From Bacteroidales bacterium (GTDB taxonomy: Bacteria; Bacteroidota; Bacteroidia; Bacteroidales; UBA932): a stretch of 64,000 bases of DNA. Under the pieces are notes generated by a model. The model saw only the letters and a list, made by a program, of their open reading frames with translations. It was not told the origin of the DNA and made no database searches. This document shows positions 2,928 through 44,346 of the stretch, in pieces. Position 1 is the stretch's first letter. Every line of letters begins with the position of its first letter. The stretch is from the NCBI GenBank assembly GCA_017535125.1, contig JAFXUS010000002.1, positions 12,365 through 76,364 of the forward strand, in the 5' to 3' direction. A program made the position numbers and the translations under genes.

Positions 2928-3794
2928 CTAGAGTTGGCTGTAGGCCGGGCTGAAGGTGTCGCCCTGGCTGGGATCGCCGGTACGGAAACCCTTCATCAGC
3001 CAGCGCTCGCGCTGGTCGGAGGTGCCGTGGTTGAAGGTTTCGGGCGTGGTGTAGCCGCGGGCCTTCTTCTGCAGGTAGTCGTCGCCGATCTTGGAGGCCA
3101 CCGCCTGTCCTTCCTCGATGTCGCCCGGCTCCAGGGAATGGTACATCTGGTTGTCGTGGTAGGCCCACACGCCGGCGTAGAAGTCGGCCTGCAGCTCCAG
3201 CCGGACGCTGATCTGGTTGGCCTGGGCCTCGCTCACGCGCTGCATCTGCTGGTGCGCGCTCTGCAGCGTGCCGAGCAGGTACTGCACGTGGTGTCCGACT
3301 TCATGGGCGATGACGTACGCGTAGGCGAAGTCGCCGTCCGCGCCGATCTGCCGCTTCATCGTGGTGAAGAAGGAGAGGTCGATATAGACCGTCTGGTCCG
3401 CGCTGTTGTAGAAGGGGCCCATCTGGGCGGAGGCGGTGCCGCTGCCGGTCTGCACGTAATCATTGTAAAGGACGAGCTTCGGCGGATCGTAGCGACGGCC
3501 GTTCTGCTGGAAGATCTTGGTCCAGACGTCTTCGGTGCCGGCGAGGATCTGCTTGGCGAAGACGGCGAGCTCTTCCTCCTCGGCCGTCGGAGTGCGGCCG
3601 CTCTGGCTCACGATTTCTGTGCCATTCATCTGGTTGACCTGCTGGATGACTTCCGCGGGGTCGCCGCCCATCAGCAGGGTGATCAGTCCGACAATGATGA
3701 GGCCGCCCAGGCCCAGGCCGCCGGCTGTTTTGCCGACGGACATACCACGCCGGTCATCGACGTTGGTACTCTGTCTTCTTCCGTCAAGTTGCAT
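2928..3794 (-). CDS. YpfJ-type neutral zinc metallopeptidase
   Basis: 288 residues. Full-length member of the membrane-anchored neutral zinc metallopeptidase family (E. coli YpfJ, Pfam Zn_peptidase). The order is: short basic N-terminus with RRG, one transmembrane glycine-rich helix (GLGLGGLIIVGLITLLMGG, about 25-43), then an extracytoplasmic catalytic domain with HEVGHHVQ as the HExxH zinc site and E-L-Q-A-D-F-Y-A-G-V-W downstream supplying the third ligand. The C-terminus F-N-H-G-T-S-D-Q-R-x-R-W is the usual family end. The physiological substrate of the family is not established. A TATATTTG box at 3823-3816 precedes the gene. Confidence 0.85.
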   Translation of the reverse strand: MQLDGRRQSTNVDDRRGMSVGKTAGGLGLGGLIIVGLITLLMGGDPAEVIQQVNQMNGTEIVSQSGRTPTAEEEELAVFAKQILAGTEDVWTKIFQQNGRRYDPPKLVLYNDYVQTGSGTASAQMGPFYNSADQTVYIDLSFFTTMKRQIGADGDFAYAYVIAHEVGHHVQYLLGTLQSAHQQMQRVSEAQANQISVRLELQADFYAGVWAYHDNQMYHSLEPGDIEEGQAVASKIGDDYLQKKARGYTTPETFNHGTSDQRERWLMKGFRTGDPSQGDTFSPAYSQL

Positions 3795-3815
3795 AGTGTT
3801 GTGGTTCTAGACACA

Positions 3816-3823
3816 CAAATATA
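3816..3823 (-). promoter_or_regulatory. -7 promoter box for the ypfJ-like/acetyltransferase operon
   Basis: TATATTTG on the minus strand, 21 bp before the ATG at 3794; exact match to TAnnTTTG. Confidence 0.6.
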
Positions 3824-3877
3824 GAATTTTTACAGGAATCTTATTTCGCACAGGCTGGCTTTTTTCAAAAATATTGC

Positions 3878-3886
3878 TACCTTTGC
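3878..3886 (+). promoter_or_regulatory. -7 promoter box for tRNA-Thr
   Basis: TACCTTTGC, exact TAnnTTTGC match, ends 9 bp before the first base of the tRNA. Confidence 0.7.
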
Positions 3887-3895
3887 AGTCCCATT

Positions 3896-3968
3896 GCCAC
3901 TTTAGCTCAGTCGGTAGAGCAGCGCATTCGTAACGCGCAGGTCAACAGTTCAAGTCTGTTAAGTGGCT
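3896..3968 (+). tRNA. tRNA-Thr (anticodon CGT)
   Basis: The acceptor arms GCCACTT and AAGTGGC pair fully. The D arm is GCTCAGTCGGTAGAGC and the T loop contains GTTCAAG. The 7-base anticodon loop TTCGTAA places CGT at 3929-3931, reading ACG (Thr). The anticodon stem GCGCA/CGCGC has one A-C mismatch. The 3' CCA is not encoded (TCA follows). A terminator hairpin starts 3 bp downstream. Confidence 0.9.
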
Positions 3969-3970
3969 CA

Positions 3971-4003
3971 AAATGAAGTCTGGCATGTTGCCGGACTTCA
4001 TTT
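3971..4003. terminator. Bidirectional terminator between tRNA-Thr and the cysteine desulfidase gene
   Basis: Arms AAATGAAGTCTGGCA (3971-3985) and TGCCGGACTTCATTT (3989-4003) pair over 15 bp with one G-T and a 3-base loop, followed by a T run to 4006. On the minus strand the stem includes the stop codon of the desulfidase gene, so the last bases of that gene are part of the terminator. Confidence 0.8.
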
Positions 4004-5275
4004 TTTGTGCGTCATGATGTCCAGGACCATCTTGTCCGTCTCCTGCATGCCCACGGAGCCGAGGCGCGTCAGGTTGTGGATACAGCGGTCCACGTCGTCC
4101 TCGATCAATCCCTCCACGCTGCTGACCGAATGGTTCTGCACGGCCAGCATTGCGCTCAGTACGGCGGTGGACACGCCGCTGCTGACTTTCAGCGCACAGC
4201 TGGGTTTGGCACCGTCGCAGACCATGCCCGCCAGGTTGGCGATCATGTTCTTGACGCTGGCGGACACCTGCTCGTAGCCGCCACCCATCAGGTAGGTCAT
4301 GCCGCAGCTGCTGCCGGTCGAGGCCACCACGCAGCCGCACAGGCAGCTCAGGCGCCCGAGGCTCTGCTTGATGTAGATGGCCGTCAGGTGGCTCAGCACA
4401 AGGGCGCGCGTGAGTTCTTCTTCCGTATTATGATTTTCGCGCGCGAAGACCACCACGGGCAGTGTCGCGGCGATGCCCTGGTTGCCGCTCCCGGAGTTGC
4501 TCATCACGGGAATCATCGCGCCGGCCATGCGCGCGTCGCAGGCGCAGGAAGTGGCGCTGATGATGTGGCTGAAGATGCTGTCGCCCATGATGCCCTTGCC
4601 GAGCGGACGCGAGAGCGTCTTGCCGAGTTCGTGGCCGTAATTGCCCTTCAGGGCCTCTTCCGCCGCGGCTTCGTTGAGCCGGCGGGATTCGTTGATGAAT
4701 TCAAGGTCGGCGAGCGGCGCCGTGGTGGCGAATTCGAAGACACGGTGCAGCGTGAGATCGTTTTCGGCGGCTTCGGCCGCCTGTTTCCCCAGTTCCGCGC
4801 GGTGATCCCGGGTCGGGCGGCAAGGCCCTTCGAGGTACACCAGGCGCGTGTGTTCACGCGCGATGATGGCCTTCGAACTGCCGCCTTTCGCGCTGCAGCG
4901 CACCTCGATGTACAGCATTTCTTCGCTCTCCCGGGTAAGGGAGACGGAAAGCGGGTTTCCGGCCAGCCAGTCCTTCGCCTCCGCGACGGCCTCCGGACAG
5001 ACGTCCTTGAGCACTTCCAGTTTGTACTCGCTCTTGCCGATCAGGGCGCCCAGGGCGATGGCGATCGGCAGACCGGTCATCCCCGTGCCGGGAATGCCCA
5101 CGCCCATGGCGTTCTTGAGCATGTTGGCGCTGAGCAGGACGTCGATGCGTTCCGGCCGGCAGCCGAGGGCTTCCGTGGCATAGGCGGTGCAGAGAGCCAC
5201 CGCCGCGGGTTCGGTGCAGCCGACGGCCGGCACCACCTCCCGCTGGATGAGGGCAATGATTTGTTCGTTGGTCAT
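3998..5275 (-). CDS. cyuA: L-cysteine desulfidase (CyuA/YhaM, UPF0597 family)
   Basis: 425 residues. The family degrades L-cysteine to pyruvate, ammonia and hydrogen sulfide with a labile [4Fe-4S] cluster. The opening REVVPAVGCTEPAAVALCTAYA is diagnostic, with the first cluster-type Cys; further conserved segments are IPVMSNSGSGNQGIAATLPV and the Cys-rich SLGRLSCLCGCVVASTGSSC. Length agrees with the family. ATG at 5275 is chosen over the in-frame TTG at 5284, because the promoter box TATCTTTG (5289-5282) leaves almost no leader. It lies 17 bp after nhaA but has this promoter of its own. The stop codon is inside a terminator stem. Confidence 0.85.
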   Translation of the reverse strand: MTNEQIIALIQREVVPAVGCTEPAAVALCTAYATEALGCRPERIDVLLSANMLKNAMGVGIPGTGMTGLPIAIALGALIGKSEYKLEVLKDVCPEAVAEAKDWLAGNPLSVSLTRESEEMLYIEVRCSAKGGSSKAIIAREHTRLVYLEGPCRPTRDHRAELGKQAAEAAENDLTLHRVFEFATTAPLADLEFINESRRLNEAAAEEALKGNYGHELGKTLSRPLGKGIMGDSIFSHIISATSCACDARMAGAMIPVMSNSGSGNQGIAATLPVVVFARENHNTEEELTRALVLSHLTAIYIKQSLGRLSCLCGCVVASTGSSCGMTYLMGGGYEQVSASVKNMIANLAGMVCDGAKPSCALKVSSGVSTAVLSAMLAVQNHSVSSVEGLIEDDVDRCIHNLTRLGSVGMQETDKMVLDIMTHKK

Positions 5276-35037: not shown

Positions 35038-36291
35038 ATGTATTACTGCAATTCATTCCTAAAGCTTGCCTTTGCCGCGGCGTTGCTTCTTACAGGTTCT
35101 TCCGTCCGTGCGCAGATTATCGATCGCCCCTGGTATGCGGGCGTCCAGGGCGGCACTTCCTTCGGACAATCCACCTTCAGCAGCATCACCGAACACCAGA
35201 TTCATTGGGGCTTGCAGGGTGGTCTTTTCGCGGGTTACCGCATCAACCGCGTCTTCTCGCTGGAAGCAGCCTTCCAGTACGGCGCCCAGACCCAGGCCGC
35301 GTTGGACTGCTGCCCGTACTGGCTGTCGGCCGTTGACGGTACGCGTTTCGCGGTCGCCGTCCTCGATGAACCGGGCTGGTACTACAAGGACCTCAGCACC
35401 CGCACCCAATGGGGCAGGGCGGCCCTGCAGGCCAATGTCAACCTGATCGGGATCTTCGCCAAGAACTCCCGCTGGGCGCTGAACCTCAGCCCGCAGATCG
35501 CTGCCGTCACGACGCAAACGAAACTCATTACCCCGGATAAGACGACGCTGAACCCCCGCCAGTGGCACCTCAGCTACGGCGGCCAGGTCTCCCTGGGCTA
35601 CCGCATCAGCGACCGCATCGGCGCGGCGCTCTACGGCGGTGTGGCCGGCCTGGCAGGGGAGCGATTCGACAATATGCCCTATCACGGCCATGATACCAAC
35701 CTCCTCTGGGATGCCGGCGTGAAGCTGAGCTTCCACTTCGGGAAATATCCGAAAAAAGGCCCGAGTGCTGCGGAACTGGAAGCAGCCCGCCTGGCGGCGG
35801 AAGAGGCCGCCCGGGCCGCCAGGGAGGCGGAGGAAGCCCGGCTCAGGGCTGCTGAGGAAGCCGCCAGGGCTGAAGCTGCTGCCCGTGAAATAGCGGCGCG
35901 GGAGGAAGCCGAACGTCTGGCCCGCGAGCAGGCCGAGCGTGAAGCCGCGGACGCGAGGGAGCGCGCCTTCCGGACGCCGATCCCGACCGTTTATTTCGCC
36001 AACGACAGCAAGCATGTCGTCGATACTTATGATGCTGGTCTGGAGGAGGCGCTTGCCATCCTGCAGCAGTATCCCGATTTCAATCTCGAGATTCATGCCT
36101 ATTGTTCGCGAAGCGGTAGCAAAGCCTACAACGAGAAGCTCTCCGAGCAGCGTATGGAGGCCGTCCGGGCCTGGTTCGCGGAGCATGGCATTTCCACTGA
36201 CCGCATGGCGGAAGCCTACTTCCACGGCATCGATTACAACGCGCCCAGCGCCGATGAGGCCCGCCGCGCGGAACTCAAATTCGTAAAATAA
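35038..36291 (+). CDS. OmpA-family outer-membrane protein, first gene of the pilus operon
   Basis: 417 residues. A signal peptide (LAFAAALLLTGSSVRAQ) is followed by an eight-stranded-type barrel (about 25-240: YAGVQGGTSFGQSTF, AGYRINRVFSLEAAFQYGAQ, LGYRISDRIGAALYGGVAG). A long Ala/Glu/Arg coiled coil (about 245-310, AELEAARLAAEEAARAAREA) leads to a C-terminal OmpA/MotB peptidoglycan-binding domain (PTVYFANDSKHVVDTYDAGL ... NEKLSEQRMEAVRAWF). OmpA-type proteins head many Bacteroidota type V pilus operons and may anchor them to the wall. It is separated by 6 bp from the next gene. Confidence 0.85.
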   Translation: MYYCNSFLKLAFAAALLLTGSSVRAQIIDRPWYAGVQGGTSFGQSTFSSITEHQIHWGLQGGLFAGYRINRVFSLEAAFQYGAQTQAALDCCPYWLSAVDGTRFAVAVLDEPGWYYKDLSTRTQWGRAALQANVNLIGIFAKNSRWALNLSPQIAAVTTQTKLITPDKTTLNPRQWHLSYGGQVSLGYRISDRIGAALYGGVAGLAGERFDNMPYHGHDTNLLWDAGVKLSFHFGKYPKKGPSAAELEAARLAAEEAARAAREAEEARLRAAEEAARAEAAAREIAAREEAERLAREQAEREAADARERAFRTPIPTVYFANDSKHVVDTYDAGLEEALAILQQYPDFNLEIHAYCSRSGSKAYNEKLSEQRMEAVRAWFAEHGISTDRMAEAYFHGIDYNAPSADEARRAELKFVK

Positions 36292-36297
36292 GCAGCC

Positions 36298-37218
36298 ATG
36301 AAGACAAGAAATATTTTTGCGGCGCTTGCCGCCACCCTGCTGCTCGGCGGCTGCTTCCAGGACGTCCACGAAATCAATCCCGGCAAGAACGTCGGCTATG
36401 TGGTCCCCGAACTACAATGGGCCAATCCTGCCCTCGCAGGTACCGGAATCCATGACTTGCTCGTCGTGGTAAATGGCGAGAGCGAGGCTTACACCAAGCA
36501 TTACACGAATGTTCGCGACCTCGCCCGCGAACCGCTGGAGGTCCCCGCGGGGGAGAGTAGCGTCATGGTCCTCGCCAACGCCACCGAAGCCGACGGATTC
36601 CAGGTCAGTGGCCTGCCGGCGACGAAGTTTACCATGGCTGAAATGATGCTTTGGGTCCCTATGGTCAGTCCCGCCCAAAACTGCTATGCGGCGACCTCTC
36701 CCGTCAAACTAAAGAGCGGTCAGCTCCTATGTCCTCCTATGCCGTTGCAGCCCGTTCTTCCTTCCCTGACCATGAGCTTGAGCAACATTCCGGATGAATT
36801 CAAGGTTCTGGTCGTCCAGGGAGACGTGGCCGATCACGTCCGTCTTGTCGAGCAGGATGGCCGCGTCGGCGTCGCCAGCACGGAACAAGGAGACGACCGG
36901 GTCCTGGGCCTGGTGGACGGAACTCCGCGCTCCGTTCTGACACTTCCCACCGTCGCCGGCAAAACGGAAAACACCATCACCTTCGAGGTCTTCGCACCTG
37001 AAACTCCTGCCGGAAACGCGACCGTCAGACCCCGGCAGGGCATGGTCGATTACGCGTTAATCCTTGCCTTCGTCGTGCAGGTCGCCAAACCGCTGGAGTG
37101 CGGGATGACGTACAAGATGGACCTGGACTTCAACACCATGATACCCAAAATGTATCTTGACTCTTATACCATCAGTGACTGGGAAGTCGGCTTCACCTAC
37201 AACGGTCGCGTTTATTAG
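36298..37218 (+). CDS. Pilus-operon lipoprotein, DUF5119/Mfa2-like
   Basis: 306 residues. Lipoprotein signal MKTRNIFAALAATLLLGGC (Cys19). The rest is beta-rich with no enzyme motif (LLVVVNGESEAYTKHYTNVR, AGESSVMVLANATEADGF, PSLTMSLSNIPDEFKVLVVQ). Its position between the OmpA gene and fimbrillins, its length and the lipobox fit the FimB/Mfa2-type anchor or DUF5119 group that caps type V pili at the cell surface. The sequence match I can recall is weak, so the family is tentative. The next gene starts 3 bp after its stop. Confidence 0.6.
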   Translation: MKTRNIFAALAATLLLGGCFQDVHEINPGKNVGYVVPELQWANPALAGTGIHDLLVVVNGESEAYTKHYTNVRDLAREPLEVPAGESSVMVLANATEADGFQVSGLPATKFTMAEMMLWVPMVSPAQNCYAATSPVKLKSGQLLCPPMPLQPVLPSLTMSLSNIPDEFKVLVVQGDVADHVRLVEQDGRVGVASTEQGDDRVLGLVDGTPRSVLTLPTVAGKTENTITFEVFAPETPAGNATVRPRQGMVDYALILAFVVQVAKPLECGMTYKMDLDFNTMIPKMYLDSYTISDWEVGFTYNGRVY

Positions 37219-37221
37219 CAA

Positions 37222-38127
37222 ATGAATAAAAACATCATAATGAAAAAGAATGCATTCCTTGCATCTGCTGCAGTGCTCCTTGCTCTTACGGCCTGCAACA
37301 CCCTGGATCCGGCTCGCCCGGAAGCCAAAGCCATTACCATCGATGCCGCCATCGGCGTGCCCACGCGCGCCACGACGACCGGCAACAGCGAAAAATTCGA
37401 CATGGGCGACAAGGTGGTACTGTTCGTATGGACGGGCAGCGCATCCGCCATTCCGCCGTTGCCTTTATGGAACGGCATTGAGCACGAACTGCAGTCCGAC
37501 GGCTCCTGGAAGCCCGCCAGCGCCATGTACTGGCAGGACTTCACCAGCGCGCATTACTTCCTGGGCGTCTATCCCGCCCGGAGCATCAGTGATTTCAAGG
37601 CTGACAGTTTCATGCTCAAGGCCGACGACTACGTGGCCAGCGACCTGCTGGTCGCGACGGAGATCAGCGGCCTGACGGCTTCTGATAATCCCGTCAAGCT
37701 GAACTTCAAGCACCTGATGGCGCGCCTCCAGGTGAACATGATTTTTCGCAACCAGTTCGCCGGTACGCCGACGGTCGCCGTCGCCGCAAAAGCGGCCTCC
37801 GGCTGCACCGTGGACTATCTTGCAGGCACCGTGGCAGCGGGCGAACAGGGGAGCGTCGCGCTCGCGAAGCTTGCCGCTCCCGCAGACGGTTACGCGCTGA
37901 GTTGCGGTGGCATCATGATTCCGCAGAGCGGCTTCCGCACCGTCACCCTGACCATCGACGGCACCGACTATGTCTATACCAATGACGAGGATATCCAGCT
38001 CGCTTCCGGCAAGGTCACGGTGCTCAATCTTACCGTCGGCCGCGACAAGATTGAGCTGGTCTCCGACGTCACCATCGCCGACTGGACCTCCGGCTCTACC
38101 CTCGACGGCGAAGCCCAGGATGAATAG
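37222..38127 (+). CDS. Fimbrillin-family lipoprotein (probable pilus subunit)
   Basis: 301 residues. The N-terminus MNKNIIMKKNAFLASAAVLL ... LTAC has a lipobox; the start may be ATG 37222 or 37240. The mature part is a plain fimbrillin (Mfa-like_1) of two beta domains: ITIDAAIGVPTRATTTG, EKFDMGDKVVLFVWTGSA, ASAMYWQDFTSAHYFLGVYP, LNFKHLMARLQVNMIF, and the C-terminal ASGKVTVLNLTVGRDKIELV ... IADWTSG. It is the shortest of the four paralogs and lacks any extra domain, so it is the best candidate for the stalk subunit, polymerised by donor strand exchange after protease trimming. Confidence 0.85.
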   Translation: MNKNIIMKKNAFLASAAVLLALTACNTLDPARPEAKAITIDAAIGVPTRATTTGNSEKFDMGDKVVLFVWTGSASAIPPLPLWNGIEHELQSDGSWKPASAMYWQDFTSAHYFLGVYPARSISDFKADSFMLKADDYVASDLLVATEISGLTASDNPVKLNFKHLMARLQVNMIFRNQFAGTPTVAVAAKAASGCTVDYLAGTVAAGEQGSVALAKLAAPADGYALSCGGIMIPQSGFRTVTLTIDGTDYVYTNDEDIQLASGKVTVLNLTVGRDKIELVSDVTIADWTSGSTLDGEAQDE

Positions 38128-38133
38128 TTCAGA

Positions 38134-38160
38134 GTCATTCCGGGCTTGACCCGGAATCTC
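38134..38160. repeat. REP-like palindrome between two fimbrillin genes
   Basis: A 27-bp unit GTCAT...ATCTC with arms ATTCCGGG and CCCGGAAT around CTTGA. It is identical base for base to the second unit inside iorA (50599-50625), 12 kb away. Confidence 0.8.
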
Positions 38161-38178
38161 TAACCAAAGACGAAAAAG

Positions 38179-39705
38179 ATGAAAATATATAAAACATTAA
38201 TCCTTGTTGCCCTTATTCTTCCGGTTTCCTGCCAGAAGGAGTCACCTGGCAGCACCGGCTTGCGGATGCGGGTCGAGGCCTCCCTGGCGAGCGAGACTAA
38301 GGGCAGCCTGACGACGGCCGACCTGACGGACTTCTACCTGCAGGTCGTCTCCGACGATGCGGCCTATAGCTACCTCGAACACGCCTCGAAGGACGGCAGT
38401 GGCGTCTGGAAGACCCCTATGGCCCTTTTCTGGAAGGACGAGACCACGCCCGTCAGCTACTGCGCCGCCCGTTTCGGGTCGTATTCTTTTACGGCGGACG
38501 AATTCAAGAACGGCGTGGACCTCCAGGTCCCGGCGGACCAGGGCACGCAGGAGCAGCTGAACGCCGCCGACCTGCTGACGATGCCCGCCGCGAGCAAGAA
38601 GTTCACCGACACCGCCGGCGGCACCCTGCCCGTCGCCCTGTCCCACGGCCTGGCGAAGGTGACCGTCACCCTCACCCTCGGGCCGAAATTCTACGACAAC
38701 AACTACACCCGGGCGGAGAATCCTGTCAAGGATTTCACCGTGTCAGGAACCAATCTCGCTTTCACCTTCCAGCCGCAGACCGGGGCCGTAAGTGCCACGG
38801 CGGACACGAAAGCGGACATCCTCGCGCTGGCAGGAGCTTTCACCCCCGGCACGGCCGAATCCAAGTCCGCCACGGCCACCTACGAGGCCATCCTGGTGCC
38901 GCAGACGCTGGCCGCGGGTGCGCTGAAGCTGACTTTCAAGGTGGGGGATTACGGCTACGAATGGAGCAATGCCGCGGCCATCACCCTGGAGACCGGCAAG
39001 ACCAGCGACCTGGCCGTTAGCGTTACCACCGCTCCTCCTGTGGATCCATACAACGGCCACGCTTACGTAAATATGGGCAATGGTCTTAAGTGGGCCACCT
39101 GCAATGTTGGAGCAGAGAACCCGGAGGATTATGGCGATTACTTCGCCTGGGGAGAGACCGCACCAAAAGCGGAATATAATTGGGGCACTTACCAATGGAT
39201 GGAGGACGGACAGTCCAGTTGGAAGCGCATAACGAAGTACACATTCGCCGATAACCAGAAAGACGGAACGTGGTGGTATGACGGTGACACCTTCAAGGGA
39301 GATAAGGGAGACGGTGTAGAGCACAAAGACTTTGCGTCCTACGATTATGAAGATGACGCGGCCCGTGCCAACTGGGACGGTAACTGGCGTACTCCGACGG
39401 ATGCGGAGTGGACCTGGCTGCGCGAGAACTGCACCTGGGACTGGAAGACCACCGATGACGGTTATGCCCACAACGGAATGCTCGTGACCAGCAACGTCAA
39501 CGGCAACACCATCTTCCTGCCTGCCGCGGGGTGCCGGGACAATGCCAGCCTCACCAATGATGGCTCCAGCGGCTACTACTGGTCTTCCTCCCTCACCGAG
39601 GACTACTCGGGTGGCGCAAGGTACGTGTACATCTTTTCGGGTGGAGTCTACAGGAACACCTCCAGCCGCTTCTGCGGTCAGTCCGTGCGTCCCGTCAATG
39701 ATTAG
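38179..39705 (+). CDS. Fimbrillin-type lipoprotein with C-terminal FISUMP domain; carries variable region A
   Basis: 508 residues. Signal and lipobox (MKIYKTLILVALILPVSC). Residues 25-280 are fimbrillin-like (RMRVEASLASETKGSLTTAD; VSYCAARFGSYSFTADEF; LPVALSHGLAKVTVTLTLGP). Residues 290-508 form a FISUMP (Fibrobacter succinogenes major paralogous) domain with C-type-lectin-like fold: YVNMGNGLKWATCNVGAENP, NWRTPTDAEWTWLRENC, GYYWSSS and the end SVRPVND. Residues 452-506 are encoded by the variable segment 39532-39696. The domain order suits a pilus-tip adhesin: fimbrillin for assembly, lectin-like head for ligand binding. A 27-bp palindrome precedes it. Confidence 0.85.
   Translation: MKIYKTLILVALILPVSCQKESPGSTGLRMRVEASLASETKGSLTTADLTDFYLQVVSDDAAYSYLEHASKDGSGVWKTPMALFWKDETTPVSYCAARFGSYSFTADEFKNGVDLQVPADQGTQEQLNAADLLTMPAASKKFTDTAGGTLPVALSHGLAKVTVTLTLGPKFYDNNYTRAENPVKDFTVSGTNLAFTFQPQTGAVSATADTKADILALAGAFTPGTAESKSATATYEAILVPQTLAAGALKLTFKVGDYGYEWSNAAAITLETGKTSDLAVSVTTAPPVDPYNGHAYVNMGNGLKWATCNVGAENPEDYGDYFAWGETAPKAEYNWGTYQWMEDGQSSWKRITKYTFADNQKDGTWWYDGDTFKGDKGDGVEHKDFASYDYEDDAARANWDGNWRTPTDAEWTWLRENCTWDWKTTDDGYAHNGMLVTSNVNGNTIFLPAAGCRDNASLTNDGSSGYYWSSSLTEDYSGGARYVYIFSGGVYRNTSSRFCGQSVRPVND
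39532..39696 (+). other. Variable region A (putative DGR target)
   Basis: 55 codons at the very C-terminus of the gene. Against region B (43417-43581), 18 codons change amino acid and all keep the same third base (C or T), for example ACC/TAC, AAT/GGT, GAC/TCC, ATC/TGC and TTT/GGT. The other differences (TCC/TCG, GCA/GCC, GGT/GGC, CAG/AAG) also fit an A in a common template. The conserved 3' block AGTCCGTGCGTCCCGTC would correspond to the initiation site of mutagenic homing. Position at the protein end is the usual one for DGR targets. Confidence 0.72.
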
Positions 39706-39710
39706 CGAAT

Positions 39711-42146
39711 ATGAGAATGAAAAAACATATACCCCTGATCGCCGCAGCCCTCCTGCTGCTGCCGGGCTGCCTCAAGGAACCCGACGCCGGCACCATCACT
39801 GTCGAGGCGACCGTCGGACCGGCCACCAAAGTGGCCTACGACGGCGCCAAGTCCAGCTTTGCCGCCGGCGACCGGATCGCCGTCTATGCCTGGACGGGCA
39901 GCGCCGCCGAGGTCCCGGCCACCCGGGTGGTGGACGGCGTGGTGAACAGCTACGACGGAAGCGCCTGGACGCCGGCTTCCCTGATGCGCTGGCGCAACGG
40001 CTTCGACGCCCACTATTTCCTGGGCGTCAGCCCGGTCCACGCCATCAGCAGTTTCACCGCCGACGCTTATCCCGTCGATCCGGCGGACTACGCTGCCTCC
40101 GACCTGCTCTTCGCCGCCAACCTGGGCGGCGTGAAGTCCGGCGACGGCGCGGTGAAGCTGGCCTTCCGGCACGCGATGGCCAAACTCAATGTCAACCTGA
40201 CTTTCCGCAGCCAGTGGACGAGTACGCCGGAAGTGGGCGCCGTGACCGTCAGCGCGAAGCAGACGGCCTCCGTCAACTACCTCAGCCAGAGCGTTGGCGC
40301 CACGGGCGACGCGGCTGCCGTGTCCCTGCCGGCCCTGACGGCGAACAGCAGCTACAGCGCCATCCTGGCGCCGCAGGACGGCGTCCGGAAGATCACCGTC
40401 ACCATCGCCGGCAAGGACTATGTCTATACGGCAGGGGAGGACATCCCCCTCGCGTCCGGGCAGGTGACGACGGTGAACCTGGCGGTCGGCCGGGACCAGT
40501 ACGTGCTGGAACTCGCCTCCGGCATCACGATCGGCGACTGGGTGGATGATGCGGCTCTCCCGGATGTCGAAGTGCCGTTTTTCACCAACGCTGTCAAGAT
40601 ACCGGCTGGGCTTGTGCTTTCTTTCCCTGATGTCGACGGCCGGGGCGTCGAAGGAATTCGCCTGATCCCACGCTACAGAAAGGAAACGGGCGATATGGTT
40701 TCATTGACCTCCATCGCGTCCCCTGCGGAATTGTTCACCGGGAGCGGAGGAAAAGTGTTCGACGCTGTGGGCCTGCCCCGGGGGACATCTGCCGCGCTCG
40801 TTTATGCGCAGGCGTCCGACAAGGGCACGGATCCGTTCGAAAACGGCGCGCTGAGCATTTCCGGGCTCAGCGGGACTCCGTCTCTGGATGAGATCACGTT
40901 TGCTCCGGTGCCGGTCTATACCGAAGATTCGGATGTTGAAGGGAAATTGCTCGCTATCCTGAACGCCGTGGCCGATGCCAAACCGGAAGATTATAATGTT
41001 GATGGCGACCTGATCCCGGCGTCTCTTTCCGATAACACGAGACCGGCGTTTAAGGAAGTGACGGAAGAGCAAGCCACGACCATTCATGCTCTTTGGAATC
41101 AGTTCTCTATGCTGAAGACATGCTCCTCTTCCGTCGTTGAACGTGCGTTATTTGAACTCTATGCTACTTTGGACGGTAATTCAACCCTTGCCGCCAAGGC
41201 GACAGTCCCGAATGCATACAAAATGGCTATTGGGATCAGGTCGGTCATCGATCAATACTGTTCCGTCACGATTACATCTGGCGTGACGATATCCCTCACT
41301 CTGAAGGATGAATACCAGGGCTTTCCTGCCGATGTCATGCTCCCGGCCGGCGCTGTCGGGATTGCATTTGATCCTGCGGACGGCGTATTAAAGGCAGCCT
41401 CCCGGGTTGTCGCCCGGGAAGACTTCGTCTATCCGGCGAGTCGCCAGTATTTCGCGGACAGCCCGCTGCGCGTCTCGAATACGGCCGTTCCGACCGGTAT
41501 GGGAGATTGGACCTGGAATGCAGTCCTGGATGCTTTCACCGACGGTGCTTCCGTCACAAACTCCACGGTCTCGGCCGCCCAGGAAACCCCGGTCCGGCCC
41601 GGTGTCGCCCGGCTTGATGTCCAGGTGGCCGGGCTGGATCAGAATGAGGATTATCTGGATAACGAGGATGAGGCGATAAACGTCTGGGACGGCTACTCGT
41701 TGACGGCCATCCTGATCGGCGGCCAGAGAGCGGTCGGGTGGGATTTTGCACCCAAGGGAACGAAGAAGTATTCCATGTATGGCCGGATCCCCGACGGAGA
41801 GGTCTCGACCATTAAACGGGATGTCCCTTCCGCCGTGCACGCTTTCTATCTGCTGCCTTCCGGGCAGTCTGCCGTCAACGTTGCCCTGGAGTTCGTCAAC
41901 AACGGAGCGTCTTTTACGGATGCAGGGAACAATCCCATCTATCATGGATGTGCTTTCTACCTGCTGGGAACCTTGAAAACTGCTGATGGTCAGCCGCTTT
42001 TCAAGAGAGGCGGCAAGGTGACTGCCACATTCACGATCCGGCCTGTCAGCGGTTTCAGCAAAGCGGTACAGATCCTTCCCGATCTGAATGCCACAACGGA
42101 ATACGAGGGTGCTTTTACGATTACTTTGAATACGGAAGATGAATAA
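39711..42146 (+). CDS. Large fimbrillin-type lipoprotein with unknown C-terminal domain
   Basis: 811 residues. Lipobox in MKKHIPLIAAALLLLPGC. Residues 25-285 are a fimbrillin unit paralogous to the neighbours (AGDRIAVYAWTGSAAEVPAT, FDAHYFLGVSPVHAISSF, LAFRHAMAKLNVNLTF, VTTVNLAVGRDQYVLELASG). The remaining 525 residues are beta-rich, without FISUMP or lectin landmarks, and I do not recognise them (SLTSIASPAELFTGSGGKVF; WDGYSLTAILIGGQRAVGWD; YHGCAFYLLGTLKTADGQPL). The stretch from 40600 to 42140 is slightly less GC-rich than the rest of the operon. Probably a tip or adaptor subunit. Its end overlaps the next ATG by 8 bp. Confidence 0.78.
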   Translation: MRMKKHIPLIAAALLLLPGCLKEPDAGTITVEATVGPATKVAYDGAKSSFAAGDRIAVYAWTGSAAEVPATRVVDGVVNSYDGSAWTPASLMRWRNGFDAHYFLGVSPVHAISSFTADAYPVDPADYAASDLLFAANLGGVKSGDGAVKLAFRHAMAKLNVNLTFRSQWTSTPEVGAVTVSAKQTASVNYLSQSVGATGDAAAVSLPALTANSSYSAILAPQDGVRKITVTIAGKDYVYTAGEDIPLASGQVTTVNLAVGRDQYVLELASGITIGDWVDDAALPDVEVPFFTNAVKIPAGLVLSFPDVDGRGVEGIRLIPRYRKETGDMVSLTSIASPAELFTGSGGKVFDAVGLPRGTSAALVYAQASDKGTDPFENGALSISGLSGTPSLDEITFAPVPVYTEDSDVEGKLLAILNAVADAKPEDYNVDGDLIPASLSDNTRPAFKEVTEEQATTIHALWNQFSMLKTCSSSVVERALFELYATLDGNSTLAAKATVPNAYKMAIGIRSVIDQYCSVTITSGVTISLTLKDEYQGFPADVMLPAGAVGIAFDPADGVLKAASRVVAREDFVYPASRQYFADSPLRVSNTAVPTGMGDWTWNAVLDAFTDGASVTNSTVSAAQETPVRPGVARLDVQVAGLDQNEDYLDNEDEAINVWDGYSLTAILIGGQRAVGWDFAPKGTKKYSMYGRIPDGEVSTIKRDVPSAVHAFYLLPSGQSAVNVALEFVNNGASFTDAGNNPIYHGCAFYLLGTLKTADGQPLFKRGGKVTATFTIRPVSGFSKAVQILPDLNATTEYEGAFTITLNTEDE

Positions 42147-44346
42147 ATTCGCATTATACATGTTGGCAGCCGCCCTCGTGTTGGTCGCCTGCACCAAAGA
42201 CCCGGCCTTCCGGGACGCCGGCGGCATCACCGTCGAGGCCAGCATCGGCCCGCTGACCAAGGTGGCCACCACCGGCGCCGCGTCCAGCTTCGAGACCGGC
42301 GATCGGATCGCCGTCTATGCCTGGACGGGCAGCGCGACGGCGGTCCCGGCGGAGCGCGTCGTGGACGGCATCGTGAATACCCTCGGCGGCGACGGGAAGT
42401 GGACGCCTGCGTCCCAGATGCGCTGGAAAGTCGGCTCCGACGCCCATTATTTCCTGGGCGTCAGCCCGGTGCGGGCGATCAGCGATTTCACGGCGGACGC
42501 GTTCGCCCTGTCGGGCGTTTACGCCACGGACGACCTGCTGGTCGCGCGTAAGCTTGACGGCGTCAAGCCCGGCTCCGGCGCGGTGGCGCTGAGTTTCGCC
42601 CATGCGATGGCGCAGCTGACGGTAAACGTCAAGGTCCGCAACGAGTTCGGTGCATCACCCGCGGTCAGCGTCTCCGTTTCCGCGAAGAGCGGCGCCACCG
42701 TGAACTACCTCACGCAGGCCGTCACGGCCACGGGCGATGCTTCCGCGTTGTCCCTGACGGCCGCAGCTTCCGCCCCGAGCGGCTACACGCACAGTTTCAG
42801 CGGTATCCAGGTGCCGCAAACCGGCGTCAGGACCATCACATTGACCGTCGCCGGTAAGGAATTCGTTTATGAGGCAGCGGAGGACATCCCCTTGACGTCC
42901 GGCCACCACACCACCCTCGGGCTCGTCCTCGGCAAGGACAGGCTGGAGCTCTCCGGCGTTTCCGTCTCCGAATGGACCGCCGGAACAGCCCTCTCAGGCG
43001 GGGATGCTTCCGTCACGAAGATCAACGGCCACGAATTCGTGGATATGGGAAATGGTCTCCTCTGGGCCACCTGCAACGTGGGTGCGGAGAATCCCTGGGA
43101 TTATGGCGATTATTTTGCCTGGGGCGAAACGACAACGAAAGCCACCTATATTTGGAGCACGTATATATGGGGTGACGGCACTACCTTCACAAAATACACC
43201 GTTGACGGCACGACCGTACTGGAAGCGGCCGACGACGCTGCGACGGCCAACTGGGGTGGTAACTGGCGTACGCCGACGGATGCCGAGTGGACCTGGCTGC
43301 GCGAAAACTGCGACTGGGAATGGACGGGTGATTACCTTGGTGACGGCTCCAACAAGGCTGGCAGAATTGTGACCAGTCCCATCAACGGCAACCAGATCTT
43401 CCTGCCTGCCGCGGGGTTCCGGGGCGGTGCCAGCCTCTACGGTGATGGCTCCTACGGCTACTACTGGTCTTCCTCGCTCTACGAGTCCAGCTCGAATGGC
43501 GCCAGGTACGTGCTCTGCGGTTCGGGTGGAGTCGGCAGGAACTACGACAGCCGCTACTACGGCAAGTCCGTGCGTCCCGTCGTCGGCGATCCTCTCCTTC
43601 CTCCAGCCCTCGGCGACCTCTACTACAGCGACGGCACCTGGAGTCCAACGCTCATCGAGGGCAAGACGCCCATCGGCGTGATCGCCTACCTGGACCAGCT
43701 GGACCCTTACGACGACGAGATCTCGGAGAACGGCACTATCGTTGGTGGCTCAGCATTTGAGGGCCACGGCCTGGTGCTCTGCCTGAAGAACGCGGCGAGC
43801 CATGTCAAGTGGAGCACGGAAGAGGTCTCTAAATTCCCCGGACAGGAAGTAACAAATGTGGACGGGCTGAAGCGTAAGACAAGCGCAAGCGGTTATACCA
43901 ATACTGCGACGCTGACATCGGACGCAGAGACTGCTGCCAAATATCCTGCCGCTGCGGCTGCAAGGAACTACACGGACCTGCCGGCGCCTGCCGGCTCGAC
44001 GGGCTGGTTCCTGCCCAGCGCACAACAGTTGGTGAGGATACAGGAGAGCCTTGGTGGAGTGAATGTGGGCGACATCACATGGGACGGTTATTATGACACG
44101 AGCCATTCTGGCGCCGACAAATGGGAGGCTGCACTGGCCAAGGCGGGAGAAAAAGGTACGGCCTACGACAGCGTGAACGATGCCTGGCTGTGGTACTGGA
44201 CAAGTTCCGAGGAAAAATACGATTTTGCCATGGCTATGATCATTGACGCAACGGGTACTGGAATGGGCTATGGTTTCGCCTGGGAAGGTTTCCTTAAGGG
44301 CTACCAGGATGACAGAGCTCGCGTCCGTCCCGTCCTCGCCTTTTAG
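42139..44346 (+). CDS. Fimbrillin-type lipoprotein with FISUMP and a second lectin-like domain; carries variable region B
   Basis: 735 residues. Lipobox in MNKFALYMLAAALVLVAC. Fimbrillin unit at about 25-285 (ITVEASIGPLTKVATTG, DAHYFLGVSPVRAISDF, LSFAHAMAQLTVNVKV). FISUMP domain at 290-485 (FVDMGNGLLWATCNVGAENP, NWRTPTDAEWTWLRENC, GYYWSSS, SVRPVVGD) with variable region B at 427-481. Then a second lectin-like module at about 490-735 of the DUF1566/Lcl kind (GWFLPSAQQLVRIQESLGGV, WYWTSSEEKYDFAMAM, ending RARVRPVLAF). It would be the largest, two-headed tip adhesin of the pilus. Overlaps the previous gene by 8 bp; two hairpins follow. Confidence 0.85.
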   Translation: MNKFALYMLAAALVLVACTKDPAFRDAGGITVEASIGPLTKVATTGAASSFETGDRIAVYAWTGSATAVPAERVVDGIVNTLGGDGKWTPASQMRWKVGSDAHYFLGVSPVRAISDFTADAFALSGVYATDDLLVARKLDGVKPGSGAVALSFAHAMAQLTVNVKVRNEFGASPAVSVSVSAKSGATVNYLTQAVTATGDASALSLTAAASAPSGYTHSFSGIQVPQTGVRTITLTVAGKEFVYEAAEDIPLTSGHHTTLGLVLGKDRLELSGVSVSEWTAGTALSGGDASVTKINGHEFVDMGNGLLWATCNVGAENPWDYGDYFAWGETTTKATYIWSTYIWGDGTTFTKYTVDGTTVLEAADDAATANWGGNWRTPTDAEWTWLRENCDWEWTGDYLGDGSNKAGRIVTSPINGNQIFLPAAGFRGGASLYGDGSYGYYWSSSLYESSSNGARYVLCGSGGVGRNYDSRYYGKSVRPVVGDPLLPPALGDLYYSDGTWSPTLIEGKTPIGVIAYLDQLDPYDDEISENGTIVGGSAFEGHGLVLCLKNAASHVKWSTEEVSKFPGQEVTNVDGLKRKTSASGYTNTATLTSDAETAAKYPAAAAARNYTDLPAPAGSTGWFLPSAQQLVRIQESLGGVNVGDITWDGYYDTSHSGADKWEAALAKAGEKGTAYDSVNDAWLWYWTSSEEKYDFAMAMIIDATGTGMGYGFAWEGFLKGYQDDRARVRPVLAF
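43417..43581 (+). other. Variable region B (putative DGR target)
   Basis: 55 codons aligned without gaps to region A. They encode the strand-loop end of the FISUMP fold (GGASLYGDGSYGYYWSSS and onward to SVRPV). Fixed blocks between the two copies include GGCTACTACTGGTCTTCCTC and TCGGGTGGAGTC; differences sit almost only at the first two bases of NNC/NNT codons. Unlike region A it lies inside the gene, followed by another 254 residues. Confidence 0.72.

What the first reader, a model, noticed from the sequence alone, without database searches (positions are those of the whole stretch)
39532..43581. Two FISUMP domains carry a matched pair of DGR-like variable regions
Seen in sequence: 39532-39696 (region A) and 43417-43581 (region B) align over 55 codons without gaps. 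Eighteen codons change amino acid, and in all 18 the third base is the same C or T (TGC/TTC, GAC/GGC, AAT/GGT, ACC/TAC, AAT/GGT, AGC/TAC, ACC/TAC, GAC/TCC, TAC/AGC, GGT/AAT, TAC/CTC, ATC/TGC, TTT/GGT, TAC/GGC, ACC/TAC, TCC/GAC, TTC/TAC, TGC/TAC). The four remaining differences (TCC/TCG, GCA/GCC, GGT/GGC, CAG/AAG) can all come from an A in a common template. Just upstream, in 18 codons around NWRTPTDAEWTWLREN, the copies differ at three third positions only and no amino acid changes. Known: DGRs randomise template adenines, so AAC/AAT codons become NNC/NNT in the target, typically in C-type-lectin-like folds. Inference: both genes are targets of one DGR.
Basis: partly seen in the sequence, partly recalled or inferred. 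Interest (0 to 1): 0.93.

Follow-up and report, generated by a model that had tools for sequence, protein, structure and literature searches.

The report
Twin hypervariable regions in pilus adhesins
Two neighbouring pilus-type surface protein genes in a gut-type bacterium carry matched regions that look rewritten by a known bacterial mutation machine (a diversity-generating retroelement) whose own genes lie outside the stretch examined; this is a new example of a known kind of system.

Summary
Window 39532-39696 and 43417-43581 align over 55 codons without gaps: 36 base differences, 33 at codon positions 1-2, and all 19 (not 18) amino-acid-changing codons keep the third base. Elsewhere in the same two genes only 13 of 40 and 63 of 176 changed codons do. 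Both genes encode Bacteroidales fimbrillin-like proteins with a FISUMP (C-type-lectin-like) domain. No template, DGR reverse transcriptase or accessory gene was found in the window, and its genome is not held. A template predicted from the two copies alone, searched in relatives, retrieved real templates beside DGR reverse transcriptases. The window's 36 difference sites fall on adenines of four such templates at 28-29 sites (P 2e-11 to 2e-10; the templates are kin). In genome G489 one template matches a copy on another contig with 0 non-adenine and 28 adenine mismatches. Best reading: two variable regions fed by one off-window DGR, diversifying two pilus-type adhesins. The window's own template and any ongoing variation remain unseen. 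FISUMP/Mfa and tip-pilin DGR targets are already in print.

The parts
39532..39696 (+). Variable region A, near the C-terminus of gene A (two codons and the stop follow); variable codons 1,3,4,8,9,13,22,24,25,27,33,34,35,40,43,44,47,48
   Evidence: Pairwise comparison with region B; difference sites coincide with adenines of relatives' templates
43417..43581 (+). Variable region B, internal in gene B; same 18 variable codons
39511..39531 (+). 21 bases (IFLPAAG) just upstream of region A, identical in B at 43396-43416; likely 5' part of the template-matched block
   Evidence: templates read also have LPAAG just before the variable codons (L096, L118, L119)
38179..39705 (+). Gene A, 508 aa, lipobox LPVSC by eye: fimbrillin-like (type V pilin fold) domain plus C-terminal FISUMP domain
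42139..44346 (+). Gene B, 735 aa, lipobox LVAC by eye: fimbrillin-like domain, FISUMP domain with region B, then about 250 further residues that are conserved in relatives
   Evidence: Pfam PF13149 E 5.9e-36, PF07603 E 3.4e-6 but below the family cut-off; alignment of relatives
43027..43581 (+). FISUMP domain of gene B, modelled alone; C-type-lectin-like fold likely
39055..39702 (+). FISUMP domain of gene A
   Evidence: Located by motif; 66% identical to that of gene B in alignment A3
37222..38127 (+). Fimbrillin-like protein, 301 aa, probable pilus subunit of the same cluster
   Evidence: Pfam PF13149 E 1.7e-39; role inferred
39711..42146 (+). Fimbrillin-like protein, 811 aa, between the two variable genes
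   Evidence: Pfam PF13149 E 4.9e-37
36298..37218 (+). 306 aa protein without family match, possible anchor or assembly subunit
   Evidence: No Pfam match at E 0.001 and no NCBIfam match at E 0.01; role inferred from position
35038..36291 (+). OmpA-like outer-membrane protein at the head of the cluster
   Evidence: Pfam PF00691 E 8.6e-9

Best explanation
The two segments are variable regions of one diversity-generating retroelement (DGR) that acts from outside the window. Its template RNA, rich in AAC/AAT codons, is copied by a reverse transcriptase that misreads adenines, and the cDNA replaces the matching segment in each target gene. This keeps the backbone of the two copies nearly identical while scrambling the same 18 codons. 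The targets are two adhesin-type subunits of a type V (fimbrillin) pilus cluster, and the variable codons lie in a C-type-lectin-like FISUMP domain, so the result would be changing ligand binding. Shown: the pairwise pattern, its coincidence with adenines of relatives' templates, and the existence of such DGRs, one with a copy on another contig, in related genomes. Inferred: that the window's host has the DGR, that one template feeds both genes, that the segments are still being rewritten, the pilus-tip place and the binding role. The mechanism of DGRs themselves is established knowledge.
For: All 19 changed codons share the third base, 14 changing at both positions 1 and 2, and synonymous divergence is lower than in the rest of the genes. 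The predicted template peptide found real templates: 5 of 29 listed matches (L096, L113, L116, L118, L119; 9-16 Asn in the last 46 residues against at most 6 in the other loci parsed, 27 of 29 parsed) and 2 of the 20 loci given (L164, L179). L044, found before by a repeat scan, is another (21 adenine, 0 other mismatches in 100 bases). All 8 templates lie beside a reverse transcriptase related to that of G917 (in L044 only its start, at the contig end). Window difference sites on template adenines: 28 of 36 (G917, G572) and 29 of 36 (G489, G011), P 2e-11 to 2e-10; variable codons on AAY template codons: 14-15 of 18. These four templates are kin, so this is nearer one test than four. Distance precedent: G489 template versus a copy on another contig, 0 non-A and 28 A mismatches. 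Residue bias fits: 9 Tyr among 28 C-ending and 4 Gly among 8 T-ending variable codons (counted), in line with what is published for AAC and AAU with the BPP-1 enzyme (PMC12875486, passages).
Against: No template, DGR RT or accessory gene found in the 64 kb. The closest genome found, G004 (87% identity in one conserved protein), has a single RT by PF00078 that is not related to the DGR RTs by tblastn (L085), and no template was recognised among its matches that were examined. No sign of ongoing variation: same-species proteins P0133 (region B identical) and P0001 (region A identical apart from an 8-residue gap) show none, though they may come from the same sample. Remote FISUMP copies in G572, G489, G011 and RGIG9119, other than the G489 one above, differ from their genome's template at 11-25 non-A sites, so a FISUMP copy need not be a live target. 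The G917 template has no copy within 3 mismatches in its 1.5 Mb assembly.
Confidence: 0.82

Rival explanations
1. Fossil pair: both segments were written by a DGR in the past, but the DGR has been lost or no longer serves this cluster, and the genes now evolve normally.
For: No DGR parts found in the window and no DGR RT in the nearest genome G004; no variation between the window and same-species proteins; remote FISUMP copies in relatives have drifted from their templates.
Against: The backbone of the two copies is almost undrifted (33 of 36 unchanged codons identical) while the other parts differ synonymously at 32 of 92 and 40 of 77, so any loss must be recent.
Confidence: 0.1
2. Ordinary paralogues under diversifying selection at ligand-contact residues, homogenised elsewhere by gene conversion.
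For: FISUMP genes are large families here (45 matches in G011), and the domain looks like a ligand-binding type of fold.
Against: Selection does not explain 19 of 19 changed codons keeping the third base with 14 changed at both other positions, nor their coincidence with template adenines in other genomes. Conversion would also even out the variable codons.
Confidence: 0.03
3. Two different DGRs (two templates) serve the two genes separately.
For: Different template types coexist in this group of bacteria.
Against: Regions A and B agree at 129 of 165 bases, and each difference can come from an adenine in a single template (by itself a weak test). Templates of other genomes differ from these regions at 17-30 non-A sites.
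Confidence: 0.05

Closest known systems
DGR targets with Fib_succ_major (FISUMP) and Mfa2 domains in human stool metagenomes (Ye 2014, PMC4159848, passages)
   Same: Lipoprotein with a fimbrillin-associated domain and a FISUMP-type domain as DGR target
   Different: There targets were called from template/variable-region pairs; here two targets lie in one cluster and no template is in the window
DGRs diversifying type V pilus tip pilins in Bacteroides (Macadangdang et al. 2024; seen only as one sentence and a reference in the review PMC12632263; the paper itself is not held)
   Same: Type V pilus subunits as targets
   Different: Details of that paper were not seen; here gene B has its variable region internal, followed by about 250 residues
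FISUMP-type DGRs found here in genomes G489, G572, G011, G917, G841, G546, G520 and in MAG RGIG9119 (L044)
   Same: Template codons and backbone resemble the window regions; order target, accessory, template, RT in G489, G572, G011 and G841
   Different: The four templates compared differ from the window at 17-30 non-A bases; whether their targets carry a fimbrillin domain was not tested

Membership tests
Diversity-generating retroelement (target side) | Copies differ almost only at positions that are adenine in their template | tested here: inconclusive
   Own template not held. By proxy, 28-29 of 36 difference sites are adenines in four relatives' templates
Diversity-generating retroelement (target side) | Variable codons of NNY type as from AAC/AAT, third base kept | tested here: met
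   18 variable codons, each with the same C or T third base in both copies; 19 of 19 changed codons keep it
Diversity-generating retroelement (target side) | Variable region in a C-type-lectin-like (or Ig-like) fold | tested here: inconclusive
Diversity-generating retroelement (cassette) | Template repeat | tested here: inconclusive
   None found in the 64 kb window; rest of genome not held
Diversity-generating retroelement (cassette) | DGR-type reverse transcriptase | tested here: inconclusive
   Four DGR RT frames find no RT in the window: hits are only the template part of the G917 frame on the two variable regions, and one at E 0.92; the G917 RT alone finds nothing at E 1. Rest of genome not held
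Diversity-generating retroelement (cassette) | Ongoing variation in the population | not testable with these tools
   No reads; two same-species proteins show no variation
Type V (fimbrillin) pilus subunit | Mfa/FimA-type pilin domain | tested here: met
   PF13149 above cut-off in both genes; gene A model aligns to BACOVA_04980, BF1861, Mfa3 and FimA; lipoboxes read by eye
Type V (fimbrillin) pilus subunit | Position at the pilus tip | not testable with these tools
   Inferred from the C-terminal binding-type domain only

The most novel reading that the evidence does not exclude
A single DGR located elsewhere in the genome rewrites two different subunits of one pilus cluster, so that one fibre or cell surface carries two independently varied lectin-like heads; in one of them the variable region is internal, followed by a further conserved domain, whereas DGR variable regions are usually C-terminal.
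Probability: 0.55. Interest if true: 0.6.

Novelty: new member of a known kind. Interest (0 to 1): 0.42.

Why it matters
It shows that DGR targets can be recognised without the retroelement in view, from two target copies alone, and that the template predicted from them can be used to find kindred retroelements. A large DGR survey says itself that it would not detect remote targets (PMC8144416, passage). It also points to paired diversification of adhesins in one pilus cluster of Bacteroidales.

Tried and rejected
Template search inside the window: best partial matches 52-67% of the 129 backbone sites, far from the two copies. Exact-pattern scans for a template in genome contigs and viral contigs found 0. 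A DGR-type repeat scan of the 84 loci then held (the window itself was over the script's length limit) gave one clear case, L044, plus low-scoring matches in L002, L019, L056, L063 and L080, which I discarded; the same scan on L085-L090 gave L086, and an AT-rich artefact in L044. RNA families: only tRNA and tmRNA in the window. The RT of G004 (L085) is not related to the DGR RTs; the DGR of G003 (L086) lies beside phage-like genes by eye and was set aside. P0121, 79% identical to the predicted template, is a cousin and not the window's own template: it conflicts at codons such as 6, 10 and 50 (by eye). Solved structures by sequence: 0 matches. Foldseek with the FISUMP domain: none below E 0.001. 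Tandem-repeat search in two of the odd RTs: nothing above threshold. Literature searches: 'diversity-generating retroelement' with 'FISUMP' 0 papers, with 'fimbrillin' 2, with Bacteroides, pilus and variable region 1.

In one search the L044 template was read one base out of frame; it was read in frame. My parser failed on two of the 29 loci (L105, L114). Matches that were given no locus were not examined.
Full report
OBSERVATION. The window (64 kb, 61% GC) encodes a cluster of surface proteins at 35038-44346. Genes A (38179-39705, 508 aa) and B (42139-44346, 735 aa) are both fimbrillin-like (PF13149) and both carry a FISUMP-type domain. Regions 39532-39696 and 43417-43581 align over 55 codons without gaps. 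There are 36 base differences, 33 of them at codon positions 1 and 2. Nineteen codons change the amino acid and all 19 keep the third base; 18 of these end in C or T in both copies.

NOT CHANCE. Independent codon choice gives log10 P = -6.0 (conditional on the observed amino acids). A better control is the rest of the same genes: changed codons keep the third base in 13 of 40 (rest of FISUMP) and 63 of 176 (fimbrillin part), against 19 of 19. Unchanged codons are synonymous variants in 32 of 92 and 40 of 77, against 3 of 36. So the backbone has been made alike recently while the 18 codons were scrambled. Across 1407 comparable pairs from 124 distinct regions the median share of kept third bases is 0.63 and 10 pairs reach 1.00; the window pair is one. 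Seven of the other nine are template/copy pairs, one is a copy/copy pair of G489, and one (L049/L059) has no template known to me. Within single loci there are 25 equal-length pairs (some of them the same place in overlapping loci); five reach 1.00: the window and four template/copy pairs, L119, L113, L096 and L044.

NO RETROELEMENT FOUND IN THE WINDOW. A scan with adenine allowed anywhere finds no template. Four DGR reverse transcriptase frames and two accessory proteins find nothing by tblastn, apart from the template part of the G917 frame matching the two variable regions and one hit at E 0.92; the G917 RT alone finds nothing at E 1. No genome is held for the window.

PREDICTING THE TEMPLATE. 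I set the variable codons to Asn, read a template peptide from the two copies and searched 398 genomes of the family of G004, the closest genome found (87% identity in one conserved protein, among 393 genomes of its order). Of 398 genomes 23 had a match at E 1e-6, with 29 matches listed. Five of the 29 are templates (L096, L113, L116, L118, L119); two loci could not be parsed and the other 22 are ordinary copies with at most 6 Asn in their last 46 residues. A second search of 200 genomes of G004's genus matched in 45 at E 1e-4; of the 20 loci given, two are templates: L164 (73% identical to the prediction, in one open frame with an RT) and L179. The matches without a locus were not examined. 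With L044 that makes 8 templates. Each lies beside a reverse transcriptase related to that of G917, 44-73% identical over the best segment in the seven other loci; in L044 only its start is held, at the contig end. The motif GLPIGNLTSQ is present in the RTs of G489, G011, G546, G520, G917 and G841 and of G572, and absent from the truncated one of L044. That this SQ motif marks DGR RTs is recalled. Cassettes of G489, G572, G011 and G841 read target, accessory, template, RT. The accessory of G572 has weak bAvd and MutS-I matches below cut-off; that of L044 has a MutS-I match above it.

DO THE WINDOW'S SITES FIT? Against the templates of G917, G489, G011 and G572 the window's 36 difference sites fall on A at 28, 29, 29 and 28 sites (51-56 A in 165; P 2e-11 to 2e-10). 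These templates are kin, so this is closer to one test than four. Non-A differences between these templates and the window are 17-30 of 109-114, so none is the window's own template. In four genomes (G572, G011, G489, RGIG9119) template versus cis copy has 0-2 non-A and 23-29 A mismatches.

ACTION AT A DISTANCE. With A free and up to 3 mismatches, the G489 template matches three places in G489 (itself, the cis copy with 1, and a copy on contig C17 with 0) and two in G572; none in G011, G917 or G004. The C17 copy has 28 of 54 adenines changed and none of the other bases; it lies over 5 kb inside its contig. This is a draft genome of unknown completeness. Against this, the G917 template finds only itself, and other remote FISUMP copies, for instance L097 in G572, have 11-25 non-A mismatches to their genome's template.

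IS IT STILL ACTIVE? Unknown. The same-species protein P0133 has region B identical, and P0001 has region A identical but for an 8-residue gap; both could come from the same sample. More distant relatives keep the backbone and change at the variable columns.

COMPARISON WITH THE LITERATURE. Ye 2014 (PMC4159848, passages) already lists DGR targets with Fib_succ_major and DUF1566 domains, including a lipoprotein with an Mfa2 domain. A 2025 review (PMC12632263, passages) states that DGRs diversify tip pilins in Bacteroides. Roux 2021 (PMC8144416, passages) notes that its survey would not detect remote targets. The residue bias (Tyr at C-ending, Gly at T-ending variable codons) agrees with PMC12875486 (passages). 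So this is a new member of a known kind. Less usual are two targets in one pilus cluster, an internal variable region, and recognition without the retroelement.

VERDICT. Two DGR variable regions, probably fed by one template outside the window: 0.82.

Noticed in passing
L155:6449-7936 (-), L156 (RT at about 3677-5100, +), L119:1767-3098 (+): The DGR reverse transcriptases of G489, G572 and G011 carry an insertion that looks like degenerate copies of the catalytic GRYVDDAYVVG loop just before an intact YVDD (by eye); those of G917 (L164) and G520 (L116) lack it. A tandem-repeat search of two of them found nothing above threshold.
   Followed up: partly
L038:8663-10702 and L038:10819-13221: Two adjacent genes that look like Ser/Thr kinase-FISUMP fusions (by eye) carry a matched pair of variable regions (20 changed codons, 19 with the same third base), without a template in view.
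   Followed up: partly
L164:298-2196 (-): In G917 the template repeat and the reverse transcriptase lie in one uninterrupted 633-codon frame; the same seems true of L158 in G546 (693-codon frame).
   Followed up: no
L158:178-11480: The DGR of G546 sits within a few kb of genes that look ParA-like and relaxase-like by eye, suggesting a mobile element.
   Followed up: no
window 43600-44343: Gene B continues after the variable FISUMP domain with about 250 residues ending in RVRPVLAF that resemble a second DUF1566/Lcl_C-type domain by eye; the only Pfam match reported there was a Big_3 stretch at E 0.074.
   Followed up: partly
window 38179-39705: P0001 is nearly identical to gene A over most of its length but diverges over about the first 120 residues, suggesting exchange of N-terminal parts.
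   Followed up: no
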